From assembly GCA_002189035.1 (NCBI GenBank), contig CM007990.1, forward strand, positions 3,410,001 to 3,474,000: a stretch of DNA of 64,000 nucleotides, read 5' to 3'. How positions within the stretch are numbered: the stretch's first letter is position 1; every line of letters begins with the position of its first letter. Positions 12,869 to 58,231 of the stretch are shown here, piece by piece. The DNA is from Utricularia gibba. Taxonomy: Eukaryota; Streptophyta; Magnoliopsida; Lamiales; Lentibulariaceae. The notes beneath the pieces were generated by a model that saw only the letters and a program-made list of their open reading frames with translations, was not told the DNA's origin and did no database searches. Both the position numbers and the translations under genes were made by a program.

Positions 12869-13716
12869 TTGTAACCATACCTCATGTTGGATCCCTCAAT
12901 CCTTCCCATTTCTTGCCTATTGATGGTGATTCTACAAGTGAACAAAAACCGTCGAAGTAATAAAATAAGATCGTATCCACAGGGAATTTTTATTGCAATA
13001 TTCTTTTCAAAACAAAGACTAAAAAAGATTGAGAGCAAAAGAAAGATTTGGTTTTTGAAAACAATAAGAAAAGCGGCCTCTAATCTAAGATTCACCTTAC
13101 TTGAAACTCGCCCTTGCGTGTGTGCAAACCTTGAGAACTGACCTGCTTGCGCAAGCTTTGGGAGTGTTATGTTAAAATAGTGCTACTCGGTGACCGTTAT
13201 AGAACCGTCCCTTGTTTTGTGGGATTATGGAATCAACCACGCCACCAGAGCCATTTCACCTCTTGTGATAACCCATGTTTTCCCCACACCCACATCTAAC
13301 CCCTACAGCTCACACCTCACAAACAGATTAGATAAAATGTGCCTTACCAACGATATCCGATTGAGCCCTTCTCCTTAGGTGCTTGAAGCCAACCTTTGAT
13401 TCTCCCACACTCCCTTAGGGCTATATGGTATTAAAGATCACGCTGGTAAAGAAAACGTTACGAAAAACAGAATCAAACCTCAAATTATATGTCAAAAAAC
13501 ATAGTAAGACAGTCCAACGCACAGAACTTGCGCAAGCAAGGCTTCACAGCAGATCCTCAGCCGCAAGCACTCACACGCGCATGCTAGACTCTAAACAATA
13601 AAAGTTGAGGAAAAACAAATGAAAGGAATCCAAAACATGCTAGACTCGACTCTAAACCCTAATTTGACTCTCTGGTCGTCCACCACTTGACCCCCTTTGA
13701 TATTCGCGTTTGGATC

Positions 13717-13724
13717 TTTATATA
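13717..13724 (-). promoter_or_regulatory. TATA box of the gypsy LTR
   Basis: TATATAAA on the minus strand, mid-LTR and 60 bp downstream (in sense) of three 21-bp repeats. Position fits a U3 core promoter. Confidence 0.55.
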
Positions 13725-13782
13725 ATGGTGGGGACTTGTCGGGCTTTTTTGATGGGCTCACATAAAATCTTCTATCCGAATC

Positions 13783-13845
13783 TTCTAAGATTTGATACAA
13801 ATCTTCTAGGATAAGATCCAACTTTTCTAAGATAAGATACAAATC
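13783..13845 (-). repeat. three tandem 21-bp repeats in LTR U3
   Basis: Head-to-tail units at 13783-13803, 13804-13824 and 13825-13845, each of the form TTCTARGATNWGATMCAANYY on the plus strand, with a more diverged fourth copy after them. They lie just upstream of the LTR TATA box in sense, where retrotransposon enhancer repeats are often found. Confidence 0.7.
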
Positions 13846-14130
13846 TTATCTTATTCGAGAATCTTTGACCGAGTTTTCATCCGGATAAACCAAATCTTAG
13901 CCTCTATCAAAGTAGCTCGAAAATCCACCAAATTATGCCAAAATTATCTTGAAAAATCACAAAACGCACTTTCCCTCCAAAAAGATCAAAGTGGTATGAA
14001 AGATATAAAATTCTTCTAACAACATAGGGAAAGTGGGATAAAAAGAATGCAAAACCCATCTAAGTGAATCCTAAAAAGCATAAATATAAGTGACACAAAA
14101 TCACTTATCAACTCCCTCACACTTAAATGT

Positions 14131-14148
14131 TTGCTTGTCCTCAAGCAA
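14131..14148 (-). other. stem-loop before the gypsy 3' LTR (copy 1)
   Basis: Plus strand TTGCTTG-TCCT-CAAGCAA: a perfect 7-bp stem with a 4-nt loop, 20 bp from the LTR edge. In element sense the loop reads AGGA and the stem-loop is followed by AACATTTAAGTGTGAGGGAG. It pairs with copy 2 at 15342-15359. Confidence 0.6.
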
Positions 14149-15341
14149 TTGTTCAAGGCATTTTCCTTCAAAATAGTAACTTGCAAATAGAGTTAAGGCA
14201 ACAATATGCATAAGTTGTTCAATGGCATACCATACACTAGCTCCCCCTTGCACGTGGCCACTCCTCGAAGGTGTCACTCAATACGCTCAAGAAAAGAAAT
14301 CCATACGAGGAGGGTAAAATGGAAAAGGTTCGCTCAATACCTGAATGTAGGCGAGCCAGCAAACTTGCGCAAGTGATCTATTGGTTTCAGCAAGCTTGTG
14401 CAATCATGAGGTCTTTTTCTCGGGTTGTAGCACGGCAGGAGCTTGGGATAGGTGTGAAATTCGGCTGGAGGCTCCAATTCATGGGTAATAAGGAGTGAGC
14501 ATCCATCAAACAGTTCTGCCATGCTTGTCCCTTGATTTTCATGCTCCAAGAAACTCCTTTTCTTTCAGTTTTGTGGCTTGTTCCAACCTTTCAGCCTCTT
14601 TTCTCTCTTCTTCTCATCTTCTTCTTCTCTTTTTCTTTTTTTTTCTTCTTTTTTTCTTTTAAAATCAACTCTCTTTTGGACAGGATGTTATTAAAAATCC
14701 TTTCATAAATTGTTGAGATAGAGCTTGACCAGTGAATTGGAAATTACTCTAAACTTTTCTTCTTTGTAATAGAGCTCGCAACTTGCGCAAGCAAACGAAT
14801 AGAACTATTTTTCAGATGCTCATTCCTTGGGTCAAGAGAAATTGATGTAGGCTATAATTGTCAAAACGGATTTGGCTTGTGGTGATCCAAATAAAAGGTT
14901 TCAGGCCAAGCGGGGCTCACTAGGTGGATTCAAGGTGGGATATTGGGATAAAACAAGGTAAATCTTAGTGCCTCAATCCTTTTGCAGAAGACCTGTAGAA
15001 TAACTCAGCAGTATACACAAGAACAAGTCTATGATCATTCTGCATTCAAGTCACTCATAATGAAAAGAAAATGGTCTTCTCGCCAAAAAACTAGGGCTAT
15101 GTAGCTTGCGCAAGGGACAAAAAGTAAACAACATGCAAAGAAACAACATAGCAACATGCATACCAAAATTCTAATTTACAGCAACTATCTCGAAAAAATA
15201 ATACCAAAAACAGATGCCTAGGTTCCAGCAAAACATAAAATGCAAGAAGTTGATCAATGAAATATATGCCAAATTTCAAAATTTTTTTTTAAACAATCTA
15301 AAAAAGTAGACTATTCCCCCCCCCCCCCCACACTTAAATGA
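14149..15341 (-). other. gypsy non-coding region between the two stem-loops
   Basis: About 1.2 kb between stem-loop copies, inside the element and lacking a recognisable domain. It includes a pyrimidine-rich tract (plus strand, 14590-14660) and three copies of CTTGCGCAAG (14364, 14782, 15105). Confidence 0.5.
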
Positions 15342-15359
15342 CATCTTGTCCTCAAGATG
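15342..15359 (-). other. stem-loop after the gypsy pol stop (copy 2)
   Basis: Plus strand CATCTTG-TCCT-CAAGATG: perfect 7-bp stem with the same 4-nt loop as copy 1 but three different outer base pairs. In sense it is followed by TCATTTAAGTGTG and then a run of 13 or more G (plus strand C run at 15316-15329). Confidence 0.6.
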
Positions 15360-15561: not shown

Positions 15562-16735
15562 TCAAGGTGAGGGGTGGTTAGAGAGGTCCACTGGAACATG
15601 CAATGTGTCCATGGAAGATTTTACCCCTTCATGAAATCGTTTCAATCTCTGAATATTTACCGTGAATTCTCCATGATCAGGATGAGTGATGAGGATTGCT
15701 CCACTGGGGTAGTTTTTCTTGATGGTGTATGGTCCACGCCATCTGGACTTGAGTTTTCCTGGAAATAAATGAAAACGAGAATTAAATAACAAAACTGGGT
15801 CACCTTCTGCCAGGTCCTTCTTGCGCAAATGACTGTCGTGCCAAGCCTTCGTTTGCTCCTTATATAGTTCTGCATTTTCGTAGGCACTCATCCTTAGTTC
15901 GTCCAGCTCTTGAAGTTGCAAGATCTGTTGCTCTCCAGCAGCCTTGGCATCCAAATTTAATACTTTGATAGCCCAATATGCCTTGTGCTCTAATTCCACA
16001 GGCAAGTGACAAGCTTTCCCATAAACTAAACGATAAGGGGAGGTCCCCAAAGGAGTCTTATACGCTGTGCGATAAGCCCATAAAGCATCAGTTAATTTGG
16101 TTGCCCAATCCTTGCGTGTTTTGGCCACCGTACACTCTAGAATCCTCTTCAATTCCCTATTAGTTACCTCCACTTGTCCGCAGGTTTGTGGGTGATATGG
16201 GGTTGATGCCCTGTGTCCTACTCCATACTTGCGCAAGAGCTTCCGGAATTCTCTTTCAATGAACTGTTTCCCTCCATCACTTATGACGTATCTTGGGGCT
16301 CCAAACCTGGGTAGAATGATTTGTTTGAAGAGCTTAATTGCAGCTCTTCCATCAGCTGCTGGAACCGCAATAGCTTCTGCCCATTTTGAGACATAATCCA
16401 CCGCCACAAGAATTTGAGTGTTGCCATAAGAAGATGGAAAGGGTCCCATAGAATCCAGCCCCTAAACATAAAAAATTTTGACCTCCAGGATATATGTCAT
16501 GGGTCCTTCATCTCTCCTAGAAATAGAACCTGCATACTGACATGGTTCGCATGCTTGAACAAATGCCCTCACATCATGATTCATTGTGGGCCAATAAAAT
16601 CTAGATTGAAGAATTTTAAAAAGTGTTTTTGATGCTGTTGCGTGCCCTCCATATGGTGATGAATGGCAGTGCCATATAACGTCCCTTACCTCCTCTCATG
16701 GTAGGCATCTTCGGTGCAGTCAAACGAGGAAGAAG
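15562..16735 (-). pseudogene. Ty3/gypsy integrase, nearly intact C-terminal pol
   Basis: Starting near 16735 the frame gives the zinc-binding module (WHCHSSPYGGHATASKT, then FYWPTMNHD and CEPCQYAG). A TAG then interrupts just before the core (V*GLDSMGPF). From 16449 a 295-codon open frame holds the catalytic D,D-35-E residues ([22 protein letters not shown]), GPYTIKK and a chromodomain-free tail ending DLSNHPSP. In life the enzyme inserts retroelement cDNA. The upstream pol (protease, RT, RNase H) and gag are missing, and the stop makes the ORF non-functional as written. Its 3' LTR lies at 12921-14110. Confidence 0.9.
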
Positions 16736-20999: not shown

Positions 21000-21921
21000 A
21001 GAAATTAATGTAGCATGAGCAAGAGTTGAACCTAGAGAAAATGCTTGAAATTTCTTGAAGACCTTTACTTTTATTAAACTAGAAAGTTAAAAGCCAAGAA
21101 CTCAAGCAAAAAGTAGTACAAAAACAATGGTGACATCTAGAGGAAGCTCTTAATTCATAACAAAGTGCCAATATTTTACAAAAAACAAAGGAAAGTAGAA
21201 ACATGACCAAAGCTAAAACAATAATGTAAAAGAAGAAAATATTATTTCAATCGGTTGCAATAGATCGTAGATATGCAAGAATTTAGATTTCATGTGGAAG
21301 ATGTGGTCCACATGAGTAGATTTGAGAATGCCCAGAGCTGTCGCTCGAGACCCATCGTTCCGCTCTTTGGAGCATGCCTCTTCGCTCTCCTATTTTCTCC
21401 CTTTTCTTCCCGTCGAAAGAAAGGCTATCTCCATCATTTCCATGAAGTTCTAGAAGGGAAATATATTCTCCATATCTTTTCTTATTTGAAGTCAATTGCT
21501 TTCAGCTAAAAGCAAATTTTCTCTTAGTTTTTTTACCTTCTTTTATTTTTCAACCCCAGAAAGTGCATTCCCATTATCAACTCTTAGCCAACTACGACTT
21601 AAATACACACTATAAGGAAGTGTGAGAATATCTGCCCAATTGTTACCAATTGAGCCTATTTTCACAACACAACACATTCGTTCGACTAAATACACAAAAG
21701 AACACAATTAAGCATGCTAACCAACATTTAACAATACAAAATAATAAAAAAAACACATTTGCATAAATCTACACACAATAAGGCATAATCCATTAGTTTA
21801 ATGCATTCTATACTACTGAGCAAAATAGAGTAAGTGAAAGATGGAATTATCCCATTGTAGAGATGGAAAGCTATATATTATATGAAAAATACTTACCTTT
21901 GGAATATTGAGGTGAAGCGCT
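21000..21921. other. unassigned insertion inside the copia element
   Basis: No family recognised. It contains a GC-richer patch (about 21290-21470) with overlapping open frames on both strands, then AT-rich sequence up to the family C copy. Copia coding is absent here, so this stretch arrived by insertion. Confidence 0.4.
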
Positions 21922-23201
21922 TGTGTTTCTCGTAGACATCGTATGTTACAAAAGCAACAAAATTTAACAATTTTCGAGAAACTCCAAACGCAGATCTTGG
22001 AATACGGTATACATCAGATAAAGGGATACTGCGAATACCTTCAGAGAATTCCGATGTTCACCAACCGCCAATAGCAGACAGCCTCTATGGTATCCACACA
22101 TGAAGTACTCCGTCGATAACCTTGTCAAGGCAGTAGAATTCTAGTCGATCTCCTCAGAGGCTAGTAGAGAAAATCGCCCCCTCACGGATTAATCTTAGAG
22201 AGTACGAAGATGAGTGGAGATCTTTTGATCAAATCTTTCTGCTAGATATTGGTAACATATCATATGAAATCTCCTTGAAGATCTTATCTTGGGGATATAT
22301 GTATATGTTCCAAATCTTATCTATATTGGATCTTTTATTTTCAGTTTAATCAATATTAATCTCCAAATAACTCTCTATTTAATTTATCCACTTTACCAAT
22401 TATATCTCATTTCATTGTATCATATTATTTTATATCGATGAGTGACTCCACTATTGTGTGTGACCTTATAAGCTTCTTCAATCAAGGCTGTAATAATAGA
22501 TTTATTAATTAACTCTTAATTAATCAAATTCATCATTATCGATCATCAGTGATGTTTAACAACATATCATGATCCCCAAGATGTAAGAATAATCAGGTAA
22601 ACTGATTGAGCCTTTCTATGACCAGCCACTATGCAATAAACAGTTTTCATCATACTTATATCTCATTCAATATCAGAACATGGGTGTATGTCTTTCTGAT
22701 GTGTCGAACTTATAATTGCGTTTAATGAGAGAAAATGCGAGCTTAAGATCAAGATACCTTTGTTGACCTCAAGTCTAAGCTTACTTGCACGGCTGTCATA
22801 TTCAAGATCTTGCTACTGATACTTGGTTAGCTTCCCATAGTAGCATCTCGAAGATGAGTCATCCAGTGAATCGATTCTCTAATAGACACCCACACATAGG
22901 ATCTAGAAATCTCATTACATCAATTTCGAGAACCATTGCCTAAACAGTTTAGGGAAGTCAATGTGTGCCAGCTTATCCGTATTTGCGATATCTTCATTTC
23001 ACAAATACTCTAGCCAAAGAGTTTTTAACTTAAACATAAATGTTTGAAGAATATCACATTAGGATTTCATCATAATTCCTATAGCACATAGATCAAGTAG
23101 AGGATTTTATCAATGATGTAAACTTGATCAAAATTTAAAGTAAACATCAAAAGATAAGATTTGTCAATGAGTTGATTGTCTCTAGAACACATACACTAAC
23201 A
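21922..23201. repeat. family C LTR (C1)
   Basis: Starts near TGTGTTTCTCGTAGACATCG and ends CACATACACTAACA. It aligns end to end with C2 and C3; it lacks part of the middle present in C2 (around 35225-35455). No matching 5-bp duplication is visible, so it may have been rearranged. Sense is probably minus, because that strand gives a TGTTGGTGTATG start and an AACCCAACA-type end typical of copia LTRs. Confidence 0.72.
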
Positions 23202-23269: not shown

Positions 23270-24518
23270 TATGAAATGTGACATGAATGAGCACCTAGTG
23301 TGGAATACATTTGTGTTTTTGGATGTGTTTTCTTCATGTTCCTAAAAAAAAGAGAAGAGAATTGGATAAAAAGGTTCAACCAGGCATTCACTTAGGATAC
23401 AACGACACGACTAAAGGATATAGGGTGCTAGAGGTGTCCAATATAAAATTGGGAATAAGCAAGGATGTAGTTTTTAATGAATTCAAAACATGGGATTGGA
23501 ACTTAGATGAAAAGAGATCAGTGTGTTATCAAAGAACCAATACCTCATATTTCTTTGCAATTTCGCTCACAGAGGAATCAATGACACGAGAAGGACAATT
23601 ACAACTAAAGAAATAGTGAAAATGAATTTTTAGAAGGGCAAAAATAAAACTCTAAAAATTACACAAGAGGCGTTCTAGAGAATACATGTGTACATGAAAC
23701 TGAATCAGAGGCAATGAAGAAAATATAGAGTTAAATCTATTAGTTCTCAATATCAATGATCAAGATATTCCTTTACCATGCATCGAGGAAGAAGGCATTG
23801 AGGAAGGTCATTGGGCAAAAGAAGCAAATCTCGTCAGTGTAACCACAAGACAAAATCATCCTCTATCAATGCCAAATGAAAATGAACTAGAAGGAAGCTA
23901 TAGTAGTGAAGATTATTTAGTGCAAGGTGAAAGGACACTATCTGATATATACCAATGTTCTTTGATGATTAAAGAATCGAAAACAATGGTGAAAGGACAC
24001 CCTAGTTGGAAGGCCACAATGGTAGCTGCACTAGTTATGATAAGTAAAAACAATATATGGAAGCTTGTAGATAGACTGCTAGACAAAAAGGTAATTGGAG
24101 AGAAGAGAGTTTTTAGAACTAAGATAAATTTAGATGGTAGCGTTAACAAATTAAAGACCAAACTTGTAAGTGAAGGATATTCACAAAGAGAAGGAATTTA
24201 TTACCTAGAGACACTTGCACTAATAGCAAGCTTAGATATGATTAAATTGTTGGTTGGACTAACAGCCTACCAAAATTGGAAAATCTATCATCTTGACCTT
24301 AAAATCTGCATTTCACAATGGATATCTCAATGAGGCGATTTATATCTTGTAGTCACCTGATTTTTTAGAAAAGAGAAAGGAAGATAAAAGTGCTCTAATT
24401 GCAAAAAAACCTTATAGAGTTTAAAACAAGCTCCAAGAGAGTTGTATAATTGAAATGGTTGTCACTTCCACAAACAAGGATTTCAAAGACCTTGTGTGTA
24501 TTAGAGAGAGATATCCAT
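23270..24518 (+). pseudogene. copia integrase C-terminus and N-terminal reverse transcriptase
   Basis: 23290-23500 encodes FGC-like then HVPKKKRRELDKKVQPGIHL and GYNDTTKGYRV, the classic copia post-integrase box (HVPKEKR-KLD-KA--GIFIGY). A 154-codon frame at 23869-24333 is copia RT: WKATM, NIWKLVDR, KKVIGEKRVFRTKINLDGSV, LVSEGYSQ and IYHLDLK. A frame change then gives SLKQAPRELYN (family GLKQAPR-WY). Two RT catalytic Asp (YVDD) would follow at the next fragment. The frame is cut by A2 at 24519. Confidence 0.88.
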
Positions 24519-28181: not shown

Positions 28182-30246
28182 GAGTACAAAAAAGGTGTTG
28201 CATCTTCATGGATTCTCGAAAAATTAAATGTTAGAAAATAAAGATCATAATCTTTTGCCTTTTATTGACTAGATGTTAGAAAAATTGACAAAAAAATTAA
28301 TTTATTGTTTTTTTGAATGAATATTTTAGATATAATCATGTTCCTATTTCAAGGTAGAATCCTCACAAGTCCATTTAGAACTTACGCCTATAGGAGAATG
28401 CCTTTTGGGTTGTGTAATGCCCCAGCCACATTTTAGAGGAGTATGACTAGTATTTTCTCCAATTTTGGTGCGGATTTTATTGAAATATTTATGGATAATT
28501 TTACAATATGTGGAGAAAATTTTGAATGTTTGGACCATTTGGATCAAGTTTTGAGGATATATGTTGAATAAAACCTGGTTTTAAATTGTGAAAAATATCA
28601 TTTCACGGTAGATTATGAAATTGTTCTTGGGCATATGATTTCAAAAAAGGCAATTCAAGTAGATAAGGCAAAATCGCGATTATGATCTTTATAAGAGTTT
28701 CATGAAAAAAAATTTCTTGCATGTCGGTTTTTATAAGAGGTTCATTAAAAAATTTTCCAAAATTGCTTTAACTCTTAGTAGATTGTTGCATAATGATATT
28801 CTCTTTGATTTTGATTATTCATGTAAACATACTTTCAATTGTTAGAAAAAGGCTATTACTATTGCACTTGTGATGCAACCACCTAACTAGAGATATGATT
28901 TTGAGATCATGTGCGATGTTAGTACCCATGCTATAGGAGTAGTTTTAGGACAGAAAATTGAATGAAATTACAATGTCATTTCTTATGGTTCCAAAACCTA
29001 AGACGAAGCCCAAAAAATTATATAATCAATGAAAGAGAATTTTTATCTTTTAGTAGCAAAGTGGTGGTCTACATAGATCATTCCGCGATGAAGCACTTGA
29101 TGGAGGACTCCAAACAAAAGTTATCAGATGGGTCCTATTGATTTAAGAGTTTGATGTTAAAATCAAGGATAGACCTGGAAGGAAAAACTCAGTGGCTGAT
29201 CATCTCATCATAATTGAAGGTAATGAAGATGAGTGGATCATCACAAAAATGTTCTAGATGAATAGTTATTCTTGTTTAATACTAATATATGTGAATCATG
29301 GTTTGCTGATTTTGTGAACATTGTTTGAATAGGAGTGATGCCACTTGGAATAGATTATTATGAAAGGAACAAAATGAAGAATGATGATAACTGCATATGG
29401 GATTATTCATATTTATGGAAGAGATGCAACGATGCCATCATTCGAAAGTTCTTCAATGAAATTGAAATTTGAAAAATCATCAATTCTTATCATGCAAAAC
29501 CACTTGATGATTACCATGGACCAAATTGAATAGCTAGAAAAATTTTGAATTGTGGATTTTATTGGGCTCATATTTCTAGAGTTGTTACGCTTATTACAAA
29601 GGTTGTAAACCATGCCAAAGAGTGGAAAATTTATCAAAAAAATGCAATGCCTCAATAAGAAATTCTATGTATAGATATGGATTTTATTGCACCATTTCCC
29701 ACTTCAGCAGGTTTTAACTATATTCTGGTTTGCAATTGATTGTGTGTCTTAATGGATTGAGGCAATTCCAACACAGAGTAATGATGTGAAGATTGTGATT
29801 AAATTCTTGTGCAATAACATCTTTGTGAGATATAAAACTCCTAAAGCCCTGATTAGTGATAGGGGAACCCATTTTAACAACAGGCCTTGAGGAGTGTTTT
29901 GAATCAATTCCATGTTTGTTACAAGCCTTTTACAATATATCATCCAAAAACTCACGGACAAGCTAATGTTTCCAATAGGGAAATCAAACAGATTCTAGAG
30001 AAAGTTATGAACCCAAATAGGAAAGACTAGAGCATGAGATTGAAGGATGCACTTCGGTCCATATGAACACCATACAAGACCCCCATTAAAACCTCAACAT
30101 TTTTGTTGGTCTATAGGAAGCCTTGTAGGTTACCAGCAGTCCTTGTAGATATATGATAGTGATGCTAACAAATGATTTTTGGTAAATGGGCATCGGTTGA
30201 AAATTTTTTATGAGAATATTGACAATGTGTTTACTTAAAATATGGA
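28182..30246 (+). pseudogene. Ty3/gypsy RT, RNase H and integrase, decayed
   Basis: Continues the pol from the previous gypsy entry. RT: KDHNLLPFID, then PFGLCNAPATF, IFMDNFTICGENFECLDHLD (family FMDDFSVFG; the second Asp is Asn), LNCEKYHFTV, LGHMISKKAIQVDKAK. RNase H: YDFEIMCDVSTHAIGVVLGQ. Then YIDHSAMKHLMEDSK and IDLEGKTQWLIISS-type GRENxxADHLS region. Integrase from about 29480: YHAKPLDDYHGPN, GFYWAHISR, IDMDFIAPFP, LISDRGTHF and a tail with FLVNGHRLKIFYEN. Stops and frame changes throughout. It ends at the D2 LTR. Confidence 0.85.
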
Positions 30247-33700: not shown

Positions 33701-34194
33701 ATGATAGTTTTGTATGAAGTGTGACATATGTTAGTCCATGTTTGGACTTAAACAAGTGTTTTTTGTCTATTTTTATTTAGTGCCAATAAATATGAAGTGT
33801 GAGTACTTGGTCAACACTCAACGATATAGAAAAGACCATGATATTATTCCTGGATAGTCTAGAACTAGCTATTCCTTTACTTCCTTGTATACAAAAAAAA
33901 AAGAGAAAAAGAGAGGAAAAAAAAGAGAGATCTAGACAATGAGTTTACAACCATACTCCTCAATAGTTTTTGAATGAATCAACTTGATGAAATGATCTTT
34001 GAAAGCACTACTTCAAAGGAATCCATTCATGCATATTTGAGTGCTCACATGACATGCACACTAGCGCGTCAATGGCTTATGCATTCAAACTTATACCTAA
34101 GTTGTTTATATTCAACATTGATGCGAAGGAAGTCAGTTTTCTATTAGTATTATTTAGTACTTGAAGACAAATTTAATATCATTGTAGCATAGTG
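33701..34194. other. spacer before the A3 LTR, with decayed stem-loop motif
   Basis: Non-coding. It holds an A/G-rich tract (33889-33936) and, 25 bp before the LTR, CTTGAAGACAA (34160-34170), which resembles the CTTGAGGACAAG core seen before the gypsy LTR at 14.1 kb. This suggests A3 is a true 3' LTR of the element to its left. Confidence 0.45.
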
Positions 34195-36649
34195 TGATAA
34201 CACATGAATTTTTCTACTTTTAGGTTATAAAAGTTGTGACTTTTAAATTATGTTTTGGGTATTTATTTTATGATTTTAAGTACTTTGAAAAATTTCAGCA
34301 TAGATATGATTTTATGTATATATGGACTAAATCTTTTGATTTAACTCATTCTATGTTATTAACTCTTTTTGAGCATAACAACAAAGTCAAAATTAAAGAA
34401 GAGCAAGACAGGAATTTCATGTAGCAATCACTTAGTAGGATAGGATATAAAGTATAAAAGTAGTAGGTGATGATATTGGGTTTCTCGTAGACATCGTATA
34501 TCAAAAAAGTAGCGGAATTTAAAAATTTTCAAGAAACCCTCAACGTAGATCTTAGAATATCGTATACATCAGATAAAGGAATGTTGAAAATACCTTTTAG
34601 AGGACTTCATTGTTCACCAATCGCCAATAGCAGACGGCCTCTATGATATCCACACGTGAAGCACTCCATCGATAACCTTCTCAAGGCCGTAGAATGCTGG
34701 TCGATCTGCTCAGCTGCTAGTAGAGAAAAACACCCTCTTGCGGATCAATCTTAAAGAGCACGAAGATGTGTGAAGCAGATTTGTAGATCTAAATCTTTTG
34801 ATAGATATTTGGTGACATATCAAATCAAATCTACATAAAGATCTTATAATGTGGAGATACATATATGTTCCAAATCTTATTTATATCATATCGTTTATTT
34901 TGAGTTAATTTCAAAATAACTCTCTATTTAATTTATATCATTCTATTTTATATCGATGAGTGACTTCACTATTGTGTTTGACCCTATAGGCTTCTTCAAT
35001 CAAGGTCGTAATAATGGATTTATTAATTAACTCTTAATTAATAAAATCCATCATTATCGATCATGAGTGATGTTTAGCAACATATCATGATCCCCAAAAT
35101 TAAAGAATAATCAGGTGAACTAATTCAGCATTTCCATGACCAGTCACCATGCAATGAATAGCTTTCATCATATTTATATCTCATTCGATACCAGAACATG
35201 GGTGTGTGTCTTTCTGATATATCGAACTTATAATTGCATTCAAGCACTAACACTCAATAGCCTACTCAAACAATTCGAGTGTCATTACCCTGGGCCCAGG
35301 ACTTACTATTTGGGTTTGATGCAATTACTTGAAATATGATATCATAACTAACATGAGTGATGAATCCTTTTTTGATTAATCAACTATCTCCAGGCTTAAG
35401 GAGTCACATCTCTACTCATCCATACTAGGCAAGCCATGGTTAGGCTCCTATTAGTAATGAGCGAAAATGCGAGCTTAAGATCAAGATAACTTTTTTGACC
35501 TCAAATCTAAGCTTACTTGCACGACTGTCATACTCGAGATCTTGCTATTGACACTTGGTTAACTTCCTATTGTAGCATCTCGAAGATGAGTCATCCAGTG
35601 AATCGATTCTCTAATCGACACCCACACATAGGCTCTAGTAATCTCATTATATCAATTGTGAGAACCATTGCCTAAACAGTTTAGGGAAGTAAATGTGTGC
35701 CAGCTTATCTGTATTTGTGATATCCTCATTTCACAAATACTCTAGTCAGGGAGTTTTTAACTTGAACATAAATGCTTGAAGAATCTCACATTATGATCTC
35801 ATCATAATTTCTATAGCACATAGATCAAGTAAAGGATTTTATCAATTATATAAACTTGATCACAATTCAAAGTAAACATCAAAAGATAAGATTTGTCAAT
35901 GAGTTGATTGTCTCTAGAACACATACACCAACAGATGATGCAACTTTCACTATATCAGACTGCACGTCAAAGGTAGGCAATATGGTTGTCAAGAATAGTA
36001 CCAGCTCCAAGAAGAGTTAGAATCGCCCTTCCGCTCAAGTTGGAGAAAGAGAGAGAAAGATATTTTTGGAGGAGATAGAATCGAAAAAAACACACATAGA
36101 GCTTATTGGACAAGCTTGAAAACAAAACAATAGGGATGAAGAAGTCAATTTTTTCAGAAAAAAATCTCCAACATGAATAATAAGTATTGAAGCCTAATTC
36201 AATGCTACTATTCCGACTTCTGAATAGTAGCTAATAGATAACAGATCATTTTACTTTTTCTTTAATTTATTTGATATTTTCTTTAGATGAATGTGTATCT
36301 CACAATGTTTATGATATTTTCTTTAATTTATCTTGATGAGATCGTGATTTTCTTATCACACATGATTAACTAAATTTAGGGATACGTTAAGGTGTGAGAA
36401 GGTAATATGGTTTAGGGTTTAATGGTTTATGATTTAAGAGATAATCTACCATTGTATACATTAGCTTTCATTTCTAACATCGCCTGGGTAGACCTAAGGG
36501 GGGTGGAAGCTACGAAGCTTGATTTAGAGGTAAACCAACGAATAAAGAGAGAAATAGTAGGCATTATTTTGTATGTAGAAACCTAGTTCTATATATTTTG
36601 CATGCAGATAGAACTAAGTTGGAAATTGGTGATGATATTCGAGACTGAC
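34195..36649 (+). mobile_element. family A LTR (A3), split by C2 and cut by D3
   Basis: 34195-34473 matches the A start (TGATAACACATG..., decayed hairpin at 34323-34348). After C2, 35939-36649 matches A1 from its TACTATTCCG block to the GTTGGTGATGATAT block. The remaining third is missing where D3 begins. Confidence 0.72.
34474..35933. mobile_element. family C solo LTR (C2), nested in A3
   Basis: Runs TATTGGGTTTCTCG...CATACACCAACA with perfect duplications GATGA (34469-34473 and 35934-35938). Longest of the three C copies. No coding inside. Confidence 0.82.
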
Positions 36650-56851: not shown

Positions 56852-58226
56852 TGTTGGGTTTCTCATTGACATCGTATGTTACAAAAGTAGTAGAGTTTAA
56901 AAATTCTTGAGAAACCCCAAACGCAGATCTTGGAATACGGTATACGTCAGATAAAGGGATACTATGAATACCATTCAGTGCACTCTAATGTTCACCAACC
57001 GTCAATAGCAGACGGCCTCTATGCTATCCACACGTCAAGCACTCCACCGATAACCTTCTCAAGGCTATCGAATGCTGGTCGATCTCCTCAAGTGCTAGTA
57101 GAGAAAATTGCCCTCTTGTAGATCAATCTCAGAGAGAATGAAGATGTGGAGATCTCTGTAGATCAAATCTTTCTGATAGATATTTGGTAACATATCAAAT
57201 TAAATTTTCATAATGATCTTGTCTTGTGGAGATACATATATATTCAAAATCTTATCTATATCAGATCTTTAATTTTGAGTTTAATCAATATTAATCTTAA
57301 AATAACTCTCTATTTAATTTATCCACTTTACCAATTACATCTCATATAATTGTATCATTCTATTTTATATTGATGAGTAACTCCATTATTGTGTGTGACC
57401 CTATAAGCTTCTTCAATCAAGGTCGTAATAATGGATTTATTAATTAACTCTTAATTAATCAAATCCATCATTATCGATCATGATTGATGTTTAGCAACAT
57501 ATCATGATCCCCAAGATATAAGAATAATCAGGTGAACTGATTGAGTCTTTCCATGATCAGCCACTATACAATGAATAGCTTTCATCATACTTATATCTCA
57601 TTCAATATCAGAACATGCGTGTGTGTCTTTCTAATGTATCGAACTTATAATTGCATTCAAGCACTAACACTCAATGACCTACTCAAACAATTCGAGTGTC
57701 GTTACCCTGGGCCAAGGACTTACTATTTGGCTTTGATGCAATTACTTGAGATATCGAAAATGTGAGCTTAAGATCAAAATAACTTTGTTGACTTCAAGTC
57801 TAAGCTTATTTGCACGGTTGTCATATTCGAGATCTTGCTACTAACACTTGATTAGCTTCCCATAGTAGCATCTCGAAGACGAGTCATCCAATGAATCGAT
57901 TCTCTAATCGACACCCACACATTGGTTCTAGTAATCTCATTACATCAATTGTGAAAACCATTGCCTAAACAATTTAGTGAACTCAATGTGTGCCAACCTA
58001 TCCGTATTTGTGATATATTCATTTCACAAACACTCTAGTCAGAGAGTTTTTAACTTGAGCATAAATGTTTGAAGAATCTCACATTATGATTTAATCATAA
58101 TTTCTATAGCACATAGATCAAATAGAAGATTTTATCAATGATGTAAACTTGATCACAATTCAAAGTAAACATCAAAAGATAAGATTTGCCAATGAGTTGA
58201 TTGTCTCTAGAACATATACACAAACA
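56852..58226. mobile_element. family C solo LTR (C3)
   Basis: TGTTGGGTTTCTCATTGACATCG...CATATACACAAACA, flanked by GAATG (56847-56851) and GAATA (58227-58231), a duplication with one mismatch. Aligned with C1 and C2 over its whole length, in the same orientation. Confidence 0.82.
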
Positions 58227-58231
58227 GAATA

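What the first reader, a model, noticed from the sequence alone, without database searches (positions are those of the whole stretch)
14131..15359. Covarying stem-loop with fixed AGGA loop, twice in one gypsy element
In element sense, TTGCTTG-AGGA-CAAGCAA and CATCTTG-AGGA-CAAGATG share the inner CTTG/CAAG and the loop, but all three outer pairs differ while pairing is kept. Both are followed by (A/T)CATTTAAGTGTG and a G-rich tract. A decayed CTTGAAGACAA lies 25 bp before the A3 LTR (34160-34170). Changed pairs with conserved pairing suggest a selected RNA structure between pol and the 3' LTR, perhaps for polypurine-tract use, packaging or RNA stability.
Basis: partly seen in the sequence, partly recalled or inferred. 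Interest (0 to 1): 0.66.

Follow-up and report, generated by a model that had tools for sequence, protein, structure and literature searches.

The report
Hairpin beside retrotransposon plus-strand primer
A small conserved hairpin sits about 35 bases before the right-hand repeat in several families of plant retrotransposons, with paired bases that change together, and looks like part of the start signal for copying the second DNA strand; in some families the usual primer tract there is replaced by a near-copy of the first 17 bases of the host tRNA-Asp.

Summary
Both stem-loops exist at the stated places on the minus strand, and the core CTTG-AGGA-CAAG occurs 146 times in the source genome (6 in the reversed control). 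Across seven retrotransposon family types the three outer pairs change together (18/21 paired; 12/5040 permutations as good), while 14 core copies outside these elements pair at chance (17/42). The loop is not fixed: AGGA or GGGA.

The hairpin is one end of a module: hairpin, 23 nt, LTR. This spacing is nearly constant across families whose intervening sequence differs. In the window family and one other family a second module lies 0.7-1.25 kb upstream; this fits a reported extra polypurine tract in Athila4 and Calypso. In sense RNA the hairpin is predicted to lose to other folds in three types; in minus-strand DNA it is predicted to form in all.

In one group of families the G-rich tract is replaced by 17 nt matching the 5' end of tRNA-Asp (15-16/17), ending exactly at the LTR. 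tRNA-Asp is also their minus-strand primer.

Best reading: a plus-strand-priming module of Athila-lineage Ty3/gypsy elements. The RNA-structure claim is only partly supported. The tRNA mimic is the most novel part and is untested.

The parts
14131..14148 (-). Hairpin A, TTGCTTG-AGGA-CAAGCAA, LTR-proximal copy
   Evidence: exact family relatives at 12 places
14111..14130 (-). Spacer and polypurine tract of module A, ACATTTAAGTGTGAGGGAGT
   Evidence: other family copies read GTGTGGGGGAGT
13000..14110 (-). 3' LTR of the minus-strand element; it starts TGATAAG at 14110 (the low-coordinate boundary was not determined, 13000 is only the stretch read)
   Evidence: family-wide TGATAA edge directly after the tract; in an E-type relative the 5' LTR starts at the same TGATAA (L103); no 5' LTR partner of the window copy was found in the window
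15342..15359 (-). Hairpin B, CATCTTG-AGGA-CAAGATG, internal copy about 200 bp after the integrase stop
   Evidence: 15 family places at up to 3 mismatches
15316..15341 (-). Spacer and G14 tract of module B, TCATTTAAGTGTGGGGGG..., a putative internal polypurine tract
   Evidence: repeated in family loci with 1121-1249 bp between modules B and A
15562..16461 (-). Ty3/gypsy integrase, core and C-terminal part, of the same element
   Evidence: Pfam rve PF00665, E 9.7e-14
34160..34171 (+). Decayed hairpin core of an F-type element, CTTGAAGACAAA
34178..34194 (+). 17 nt similar to the 5' end of tRNA-Asp (14/17 in this decayed copy)
34195..34464 (+). Start of an F-type 3' LTR, TGATAACAC (the far boundary was not determined)
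   Evidence: integrase relics on the same strand at 29696-30144

Best explanation
The stem-loop is a conserved cis-element of the plus-strand initiation module of Athila-lineage Ty3/gypsy retrotransposons. The module is hairpin, 23 nt holding the primer tract, then the LTR. Shown: the module, its spacing, its covariation, its position at the LTR edge, and a second internal module in two families. Inferred: after the minus-strand DNA has been copied and the genomic RNA is being removed, the complementary arms fold back in the minus-strand DNA just behind the primer tract. The fold would fix the upstream edge of the RNA/DNA hybrid about 20 nt before the LTR edge, so that the element's RNase H cuts, and DNA synthesis starts, at the LTR boundary. 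At the internal module it would mark a second plus-strand start. The sense RNA may also form the hairpin in types A and E.
For: Family-level compensatory changes, including one inside the core: CTCA...CGAG turns T-A into C-G. Non-element cores pair at chance. Hairpin-to-LTR spacing is 23 nt in 25 of 32 copies with a recognised edge and 21-24 in all, although the intervening sequence is a G-tract in types A, C and D and a tRNA-like 17-mer in types E and F. E and F families align to each other mainly over about 45-65 bp around this module. The hairpin travels with the tract in internal module B. Minus-strand DNA folding is predicted in all types. Mismatches in the consensus of types C, D and I are A.C, which is G.T on the minus strand. 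Sireviruses have an inverted repeat placed exactly at the PPT/LTR junction, proposed to aid primer formation, and an extra PPT is reported in Athila4 and Calypso linkers (PMC2829016).
Against: No experiment. One genome only. The number of independent family types is small (4-7). Type F keeps a G.U pair (sense RNA wobble, A.C on the minus strand), so the strand argument is mixed. Constant spacing could be plain common ancestry. Internal module G of the C family has TGAGGACA and the tract but a different pairing (TGAGG-ACAT-CCTCA), so the linear sequence may also be under selection. DNA energy parameters favour simple hairpins in general: sense DNA also scores high.
Confidence: 0.5

Rival explanations
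1. The hairpin is a genomic-RNA signal (packaging, dimerisation, nuclear export or stability) that merely lies near the 3' end.
For: Covariation fits any fold-back strand. Sense RNA folds the hairpin in types A and E (0.83, 0.79). The AGGA and GGGA loops resemble known RNA tetraloop classes (own knowledge).
Against: In types B, C and D the hairpin is predicted at 0.05 or less in sense RNA. It is tied at fixed spacing to the primer tract and is repeated together with it, which packaging would not require.
Confidence: 0.22
2. The conserved part is a linear or palindromic protein-binding sequence around TGAGGACA; the pairing is secondary.
For: TGAGGACA and the tract are shared by internal module G, which has another pairing. 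The core is more constant than the outer arms.
Against: The outer arms have no common sequence yet stay complementary in 170/186 cells; a linear motif does not predict that, nor the T-A to C-G change inside the core.
Confidence: 0.15
3. The internal module B is only a relic: the ancestral element ended soon after pol, as envelope-less Diaspora does, and the extra region was captured between two copies of the terminal module.
For: Module B lies about 200 bp after the integrase stop; in Diaspora the terminal PPT is 128 bp after the pol stop (PMC1142308).
Against: The internal hairpin keeps its own compensated stem (CAT/ATG), and most family copies keep it intact. It explains the origin of B, not the conservation of A.
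Confidence: 0.13

Closest known systems
Sirevirus (Ty1/copia) inverted repeat flanking the terminal PPT (PMC2829016)
   Same: Conserved fold-back precisely placed at the PPT/3' LTR junction; elements also carry additional upstream PPT copies; proposed role in primer formation.
   Different: Sirevirus arms flank the PPT and the right arm lies inside the LTR; extra PPTs lack the repeat. Here the whole hairpin lies upstream of the tract, has a 4-nt loop and is repeated at the internal tract. Different superfamily.
Extra PPT in the linkers of Athila4 and Calypso (Wright and Voytas 2002, as cited in PMC2829016)
   Same: Ty3/gypsy Athila-lineage elements with one extra primer-like tract between pol and the 3' LTR.
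   Different: The original paper is not held here; whether it noted the hairpin is unknown. The hairpin, the 23-nt spacing and the covariation are added here.
Ty3 bipartite primer-binding site (PMC5371799)
   Same: tRNA-related sequence at the 3' end of the element near the start of U3, in an element of the same superfamily.
   Different: Ty3's 3' segment pairs with the primer tRNA in the RNA. Here the 17 nt are the same sense as the tRNA 5' end, so over their whole length they can pair with it only through minus-strand DNA.
Central PPT and termination signal of lentiviruses; PPT2 of Ty1
   Same: Two plus-strand starts per element, one internal (named from own knowledge and PMC2829016).
   Different: Those internal tracts lie within pol; here the internal tract lies after pol and carries a hairpin. 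No internal start has been demonstrated here.
Helenus and Cassandra (LTRs with tRNA- or 5S-derived promoters, PMC10886601)
   Same: Small-RNA-gene sequence captured by an LTR element.
   Different: There it lies inside the LTR with Pol III promoter boxes; here only tRNA nt 1-17 are present, outside the LTR, and no B-box-like site was found in the next 200 nt.

Membership tests
Ty3/gypsy (Metaviridae) retrotransposon | Integrase of the gypsy type in pol order before the 3' LTR | tested here: met
   rve PF00665 E 9.7e-14 on the window ORF 15562-16461; homologous integrase relics upstream of the F-type module
Athila lineage (OTA) | Primer-binding site complementary to the tRNA-Asp 3' end, as in Calypso and Diaspora | tested here: met
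   TGGCGCCGTTGCCGGGG directly after E LTR ends and after CGTTTATCA (taken to be the F LTR end); 30 exact genome sites, 0 control. The window element's own PBS is missing, so this holds for relatives
Athila lineage (OTA) | ATHILA ORF-1 domain (PF03078) in the extra ORF | tested here: inconclusive
   E 0.0014, 17.9 bits, below the curated cut-off of 20.2, in F-type locus L038; Transposase_32 matches in L038, L076 and L077, also below their cut-off
Athila lineage (OTA) | Reverse-transcriptase phylogeny and absence of the additional RNase H that marks Tat | not tested
Polypurine-tract plus-strand primer | Purine-rich tract directly before the 3' LTR (types A, C, D) | tested here: met
   GTGTGGGGGAGT or GTGTGGGGGAATA next to the LTR
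Polypurine-tract plus-strand primer | Purine-rich tract directly before the 3' LTR (types E, F) | tested here: not met
   No purine run of 8 or more in 150 nt before the LTR in nine loci; a tRNA-Asp-like 17-mer is there instead
Sirevirus-type PPT inverted repeat | Right arm of the repeat inside the 3' LTR | tested here: not met
   Both arms lie upstream of the tract
Known Rfam RNA family | Match at the gathering score | tested here: not met
   0 matches in the window

The most novel reading that the evidence does not exclude
In the E/F families the plus-strand primer is not a polypurine tract but the 5' end of tRNA-Asp, either as a tRNA fragment or as the 5' part of the same tRNA that primed the minus strand. 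It would anneal to the complementary 17 nt in minus-strand DNA, ending exactly at the LTR, with the conserved hairpin acting as a ruler behind it. One tRNA species would then prime both strands.
Probability: 0.15. Interest if true: 0.88.

Novelty: new variant of a known kind. Interest (0 to 1): 0.62.

Why it matters
How RNase H picks one exact plus-strand start in LTR elements, and why sequence alone is not enough, is an open question. A covarying hairpin at a nearly constant distance from the LTR in several families, kept even where the purine tract is gone, gives a direct test. The families with a tRNA-Asp 5'-end copy in place of the tract would, if that copy primes DNA synthesis, be a new way to start the second strand.

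Tried and rejected
Viral contig scans for the module or the integrase gave no relatives, so there is no cross-species test. Rfam gave no match. An alternative sense-RNA helix (CTTGAG with TTTAAG) was considered as the selected structure and rejected as the general one: types E and F lack TTTAAG and type A2 breaks a pair. A Pol III promoter role for the tRNA-like 17-mer was considered: it contains an A-box-like stretch, but no B-box-like site follows within 200 nt, so it was not favoured. One search used an end anchor that excluded intact cores by mistake; it was repeated correctly. Target-site duplications of the E-type elements were not confirmed: for one pair of candidate ends the 5' locus did not start with the LTR (L102), and for the other the 3' end was not reached (L104). 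The chance that the two window stems share a core by accident was checked first and is not negligible on its own.

Full report
What was checked. The two stem-loops are in the sequence as described, on the minus strand at 14131-14148 and 15342-15359. [quoted passage not shown] The decayed third copy at 34160 belongs to a different family on the plus strand, whose LTR starts at 34195.

Is it more than chance? In the window alone, two hits to the 12-base core are not decisive (0.30 expected, 5 of 100 shuffles reach two). The window lies in a 100-Mb assembly that can be searched. The core CTTGAGGACAAG occurs 146 times there against 6 for the reversed pattern. With the downstream segment it occurs 42 times against 0. 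A search anchored only on the downstream tract, not on the hairpin, returned 68 places, of which most carry the core or a one- or two-base decay of it and the rest form a second class, G.

Family types. A is the window's LTR-proximal copy (outer arm TTG/CAA). B is the internal copy (CAT/ATG). C and D are other families with the same tract (CATA/CATG or CATA/TATG, and GATA/TACG). E and F have no G-tract and read TTTAGA/TCTAGA and GGA/TCT. Further types appear when the search is anchored on the segment after the hairpin: one with loop GGGA (20 of 70 copies) and one, type I, with core CTCA-AGGA-CGAG, in which the third core pair has changed from T-A to C-G. E and F families, and others in that group, align to each other mainly over about 45-65 bp around this module, so the module is conserved where the rest of these non-coding regions is not.

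Covariation. Seven family types (A, B, C, D, E, F and the type in locus L053) give 18 of 21 outer pairs as standard pairs; only 12 of 5040 re-pairings of arms among families do as well. Fourteen copies of the core outside these elements give 17 of 42, the chance level. On an alignment of 35 distinct sequences, 95% of cells pair, each outer pair has three to five standard pair types, and the covariation score is 0.395 against 0.101 +/- 0.023 for shuffles and at most 0.093 for slid structures. Caveats: sequences within a family are related, copies are mostly dead and drifting, and the number of independent changes is small. The invariance of the core is by construction; in the 70 copies it is 90% or more at every position except the first loop base.

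Which strand? In sense RNA with 75-nt flanks the hairpin has mean predicted probability 0.83 (A), 0.05 (B), 0.02 (C), 0.00 (D), 0.79 (E) and 0.47 (F). On the minus strand as DNA the values are 0.99, 0.98, 0.98, 0.75, 0.99 and 0.82. In B, C and D the sense strand is captured by pairing with the TTTAAGTG segment and the G-tract. Imperfect pairs in the consensus of C, D and I are A.C, which would be G.T on the minus strand; F has G.U, which favours the sense strand. This leans towards minus-strand DNA but is not decisive; it rests on energy models.

Position. The distance from the end of the core to the LTR start is 23 nt in 25 of 32 copies with a recognised edge, and 21-24 in all, the differences lying in the G run of A and C types. 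This holds for types whose intervening sequence is a G-tract (A, C, D) and for types whose intervening sequence is unrelated to it (E, F). The LTR start was checked in an E element: its 5' LTR begins TGATAACACC after unrelated DNA (L103), so the edge is real. A second module, hairpin plus G-tract, is found inside the window family 1121-1249 bp upstream of A. In the C family a second module (class G) lies 687-810 bp upstream, just after a Transposase_32-like ORF; it keeps TGAGGACA and the tract but pairs TGAGG with CCTCA instead.

The tRNA-like segment. In E and F types the 17 nt between the hairpin and the LTR read GTCGTTGTAG[G/C]ATA[G/A]TG. The host tRNA-Asp(GTC) gene begins GTCGTTGTAGTATAGTGG (ARAGORN on L099; sequence). 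The match is 16/17 in E and some F-like types and 15/17 in most F copies, begins at tRNA nucleotide 1 and ends exactly at the LTR. For one given 17-mer the chance of at most one mismatch is 3e-9, and of at most two 7e-8. There are 131 places at up to two mismatches and none in the control, nearly all preceded by the 3' arm of the hairpin. E elements, and by their LTR-end sequence probably F elements, use tRNA-Asp as minus-strand primer: the complementary 17 nt follow the LTR ends, as reported for Calypso and Diaspora (PMC1142308). No purine run of eight or more lies in the 150 nt before the LTR in nine E/F loci. Position 11 is C or G in 68 of 70 copies and almost never the tRNA's T, so the element sequence can be told from a tRNA fragment in an experiment. 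Short 5' fragments of tRNA-Asp(GTC) are known in plants (19 nt, cited in PMC8215267).

Mechanism. Shown by sequence: the module, its covariation, spacing, repetition and the tRNA match. Inferred: the arms fold back in minus-strand DNA behind the primer tract and set the upstream edge of the RNA/DNA hybrid, so that RNase H cutting and plus-strand start fall at the LTR edge; the internal module gives a second start. The analogous proposal for Sirevirus inverted repeats at the PPT, and the extra PPT reported for Athila4 and Calypso (PMC2829016), make this the most economical reading. For E/F families the primer may be the element's own RNA over the tRNA-like stretch, or the tRNA itself; the second would be new.

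Known or new. No held paper contains the core in a retrotransposon context, and searches on PPT structure in Athila elements found none that describes it; most older papers, including Wright and Voytas 2002, are not held. Filed as a new variant of a known kind, with an unexplained and possibly new element in the tRNA-Asp mimic.

Limits. One genome, whose name is not given; no other plant genome could be searched. Copy numbers are lower bounds. Lineage assignment to Athila rests on the integrase, the tRNA-Asp PBS of relatives and weak ORF matches, not on a reverse-transcriptase tree.

Noticed in passing
E/F-type loci, e.g. L041:1519-1535; window 34178-34194: The 17 nt directly before the 3' LTR copy the 5' end of tRNA-Asp, the tRNA that also primes the minus strand of these elements, and no polypurine tract is present.
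   Followed up: partly
L077:735-790, L076:665-720, L064:658-715 and 20 or more other places: Class G internal module CACTTGATGATGAGGACATCCTCAAAATTAAGTGTGGGGGAGG, 0.7-0.8 kb upstream of the C-type terminal module, with a different hairpin around the same TGAGGACA.
   Followed up: partly
C451:4801410 and C460:227300: A rare family type with core CTCA-AGGA-CGAG: a compensated core pair plus an A.C closing pair.
   Followed up: partly
window 21910-23201, 34465-35936, 56854-58228: Three direct repeats on the plus strand, 80-92% alike over about 1.3-1.4 kb, one beginning about 270 bp into the F-type LTR; they look like nested insertions of one family.
   Followed up: no
L104 (C451:4442880-4443080): Downstream of an E-type 3' LTR the sequence resembles the start of an internal region after a PBS, suggesting tandem elements sharing an LTR.
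   Followed up: no
window 23704-24333, plus strand: A 209-aa open frame that reads like a copia-type reverse transcriptase remnant.
   Followed up: no
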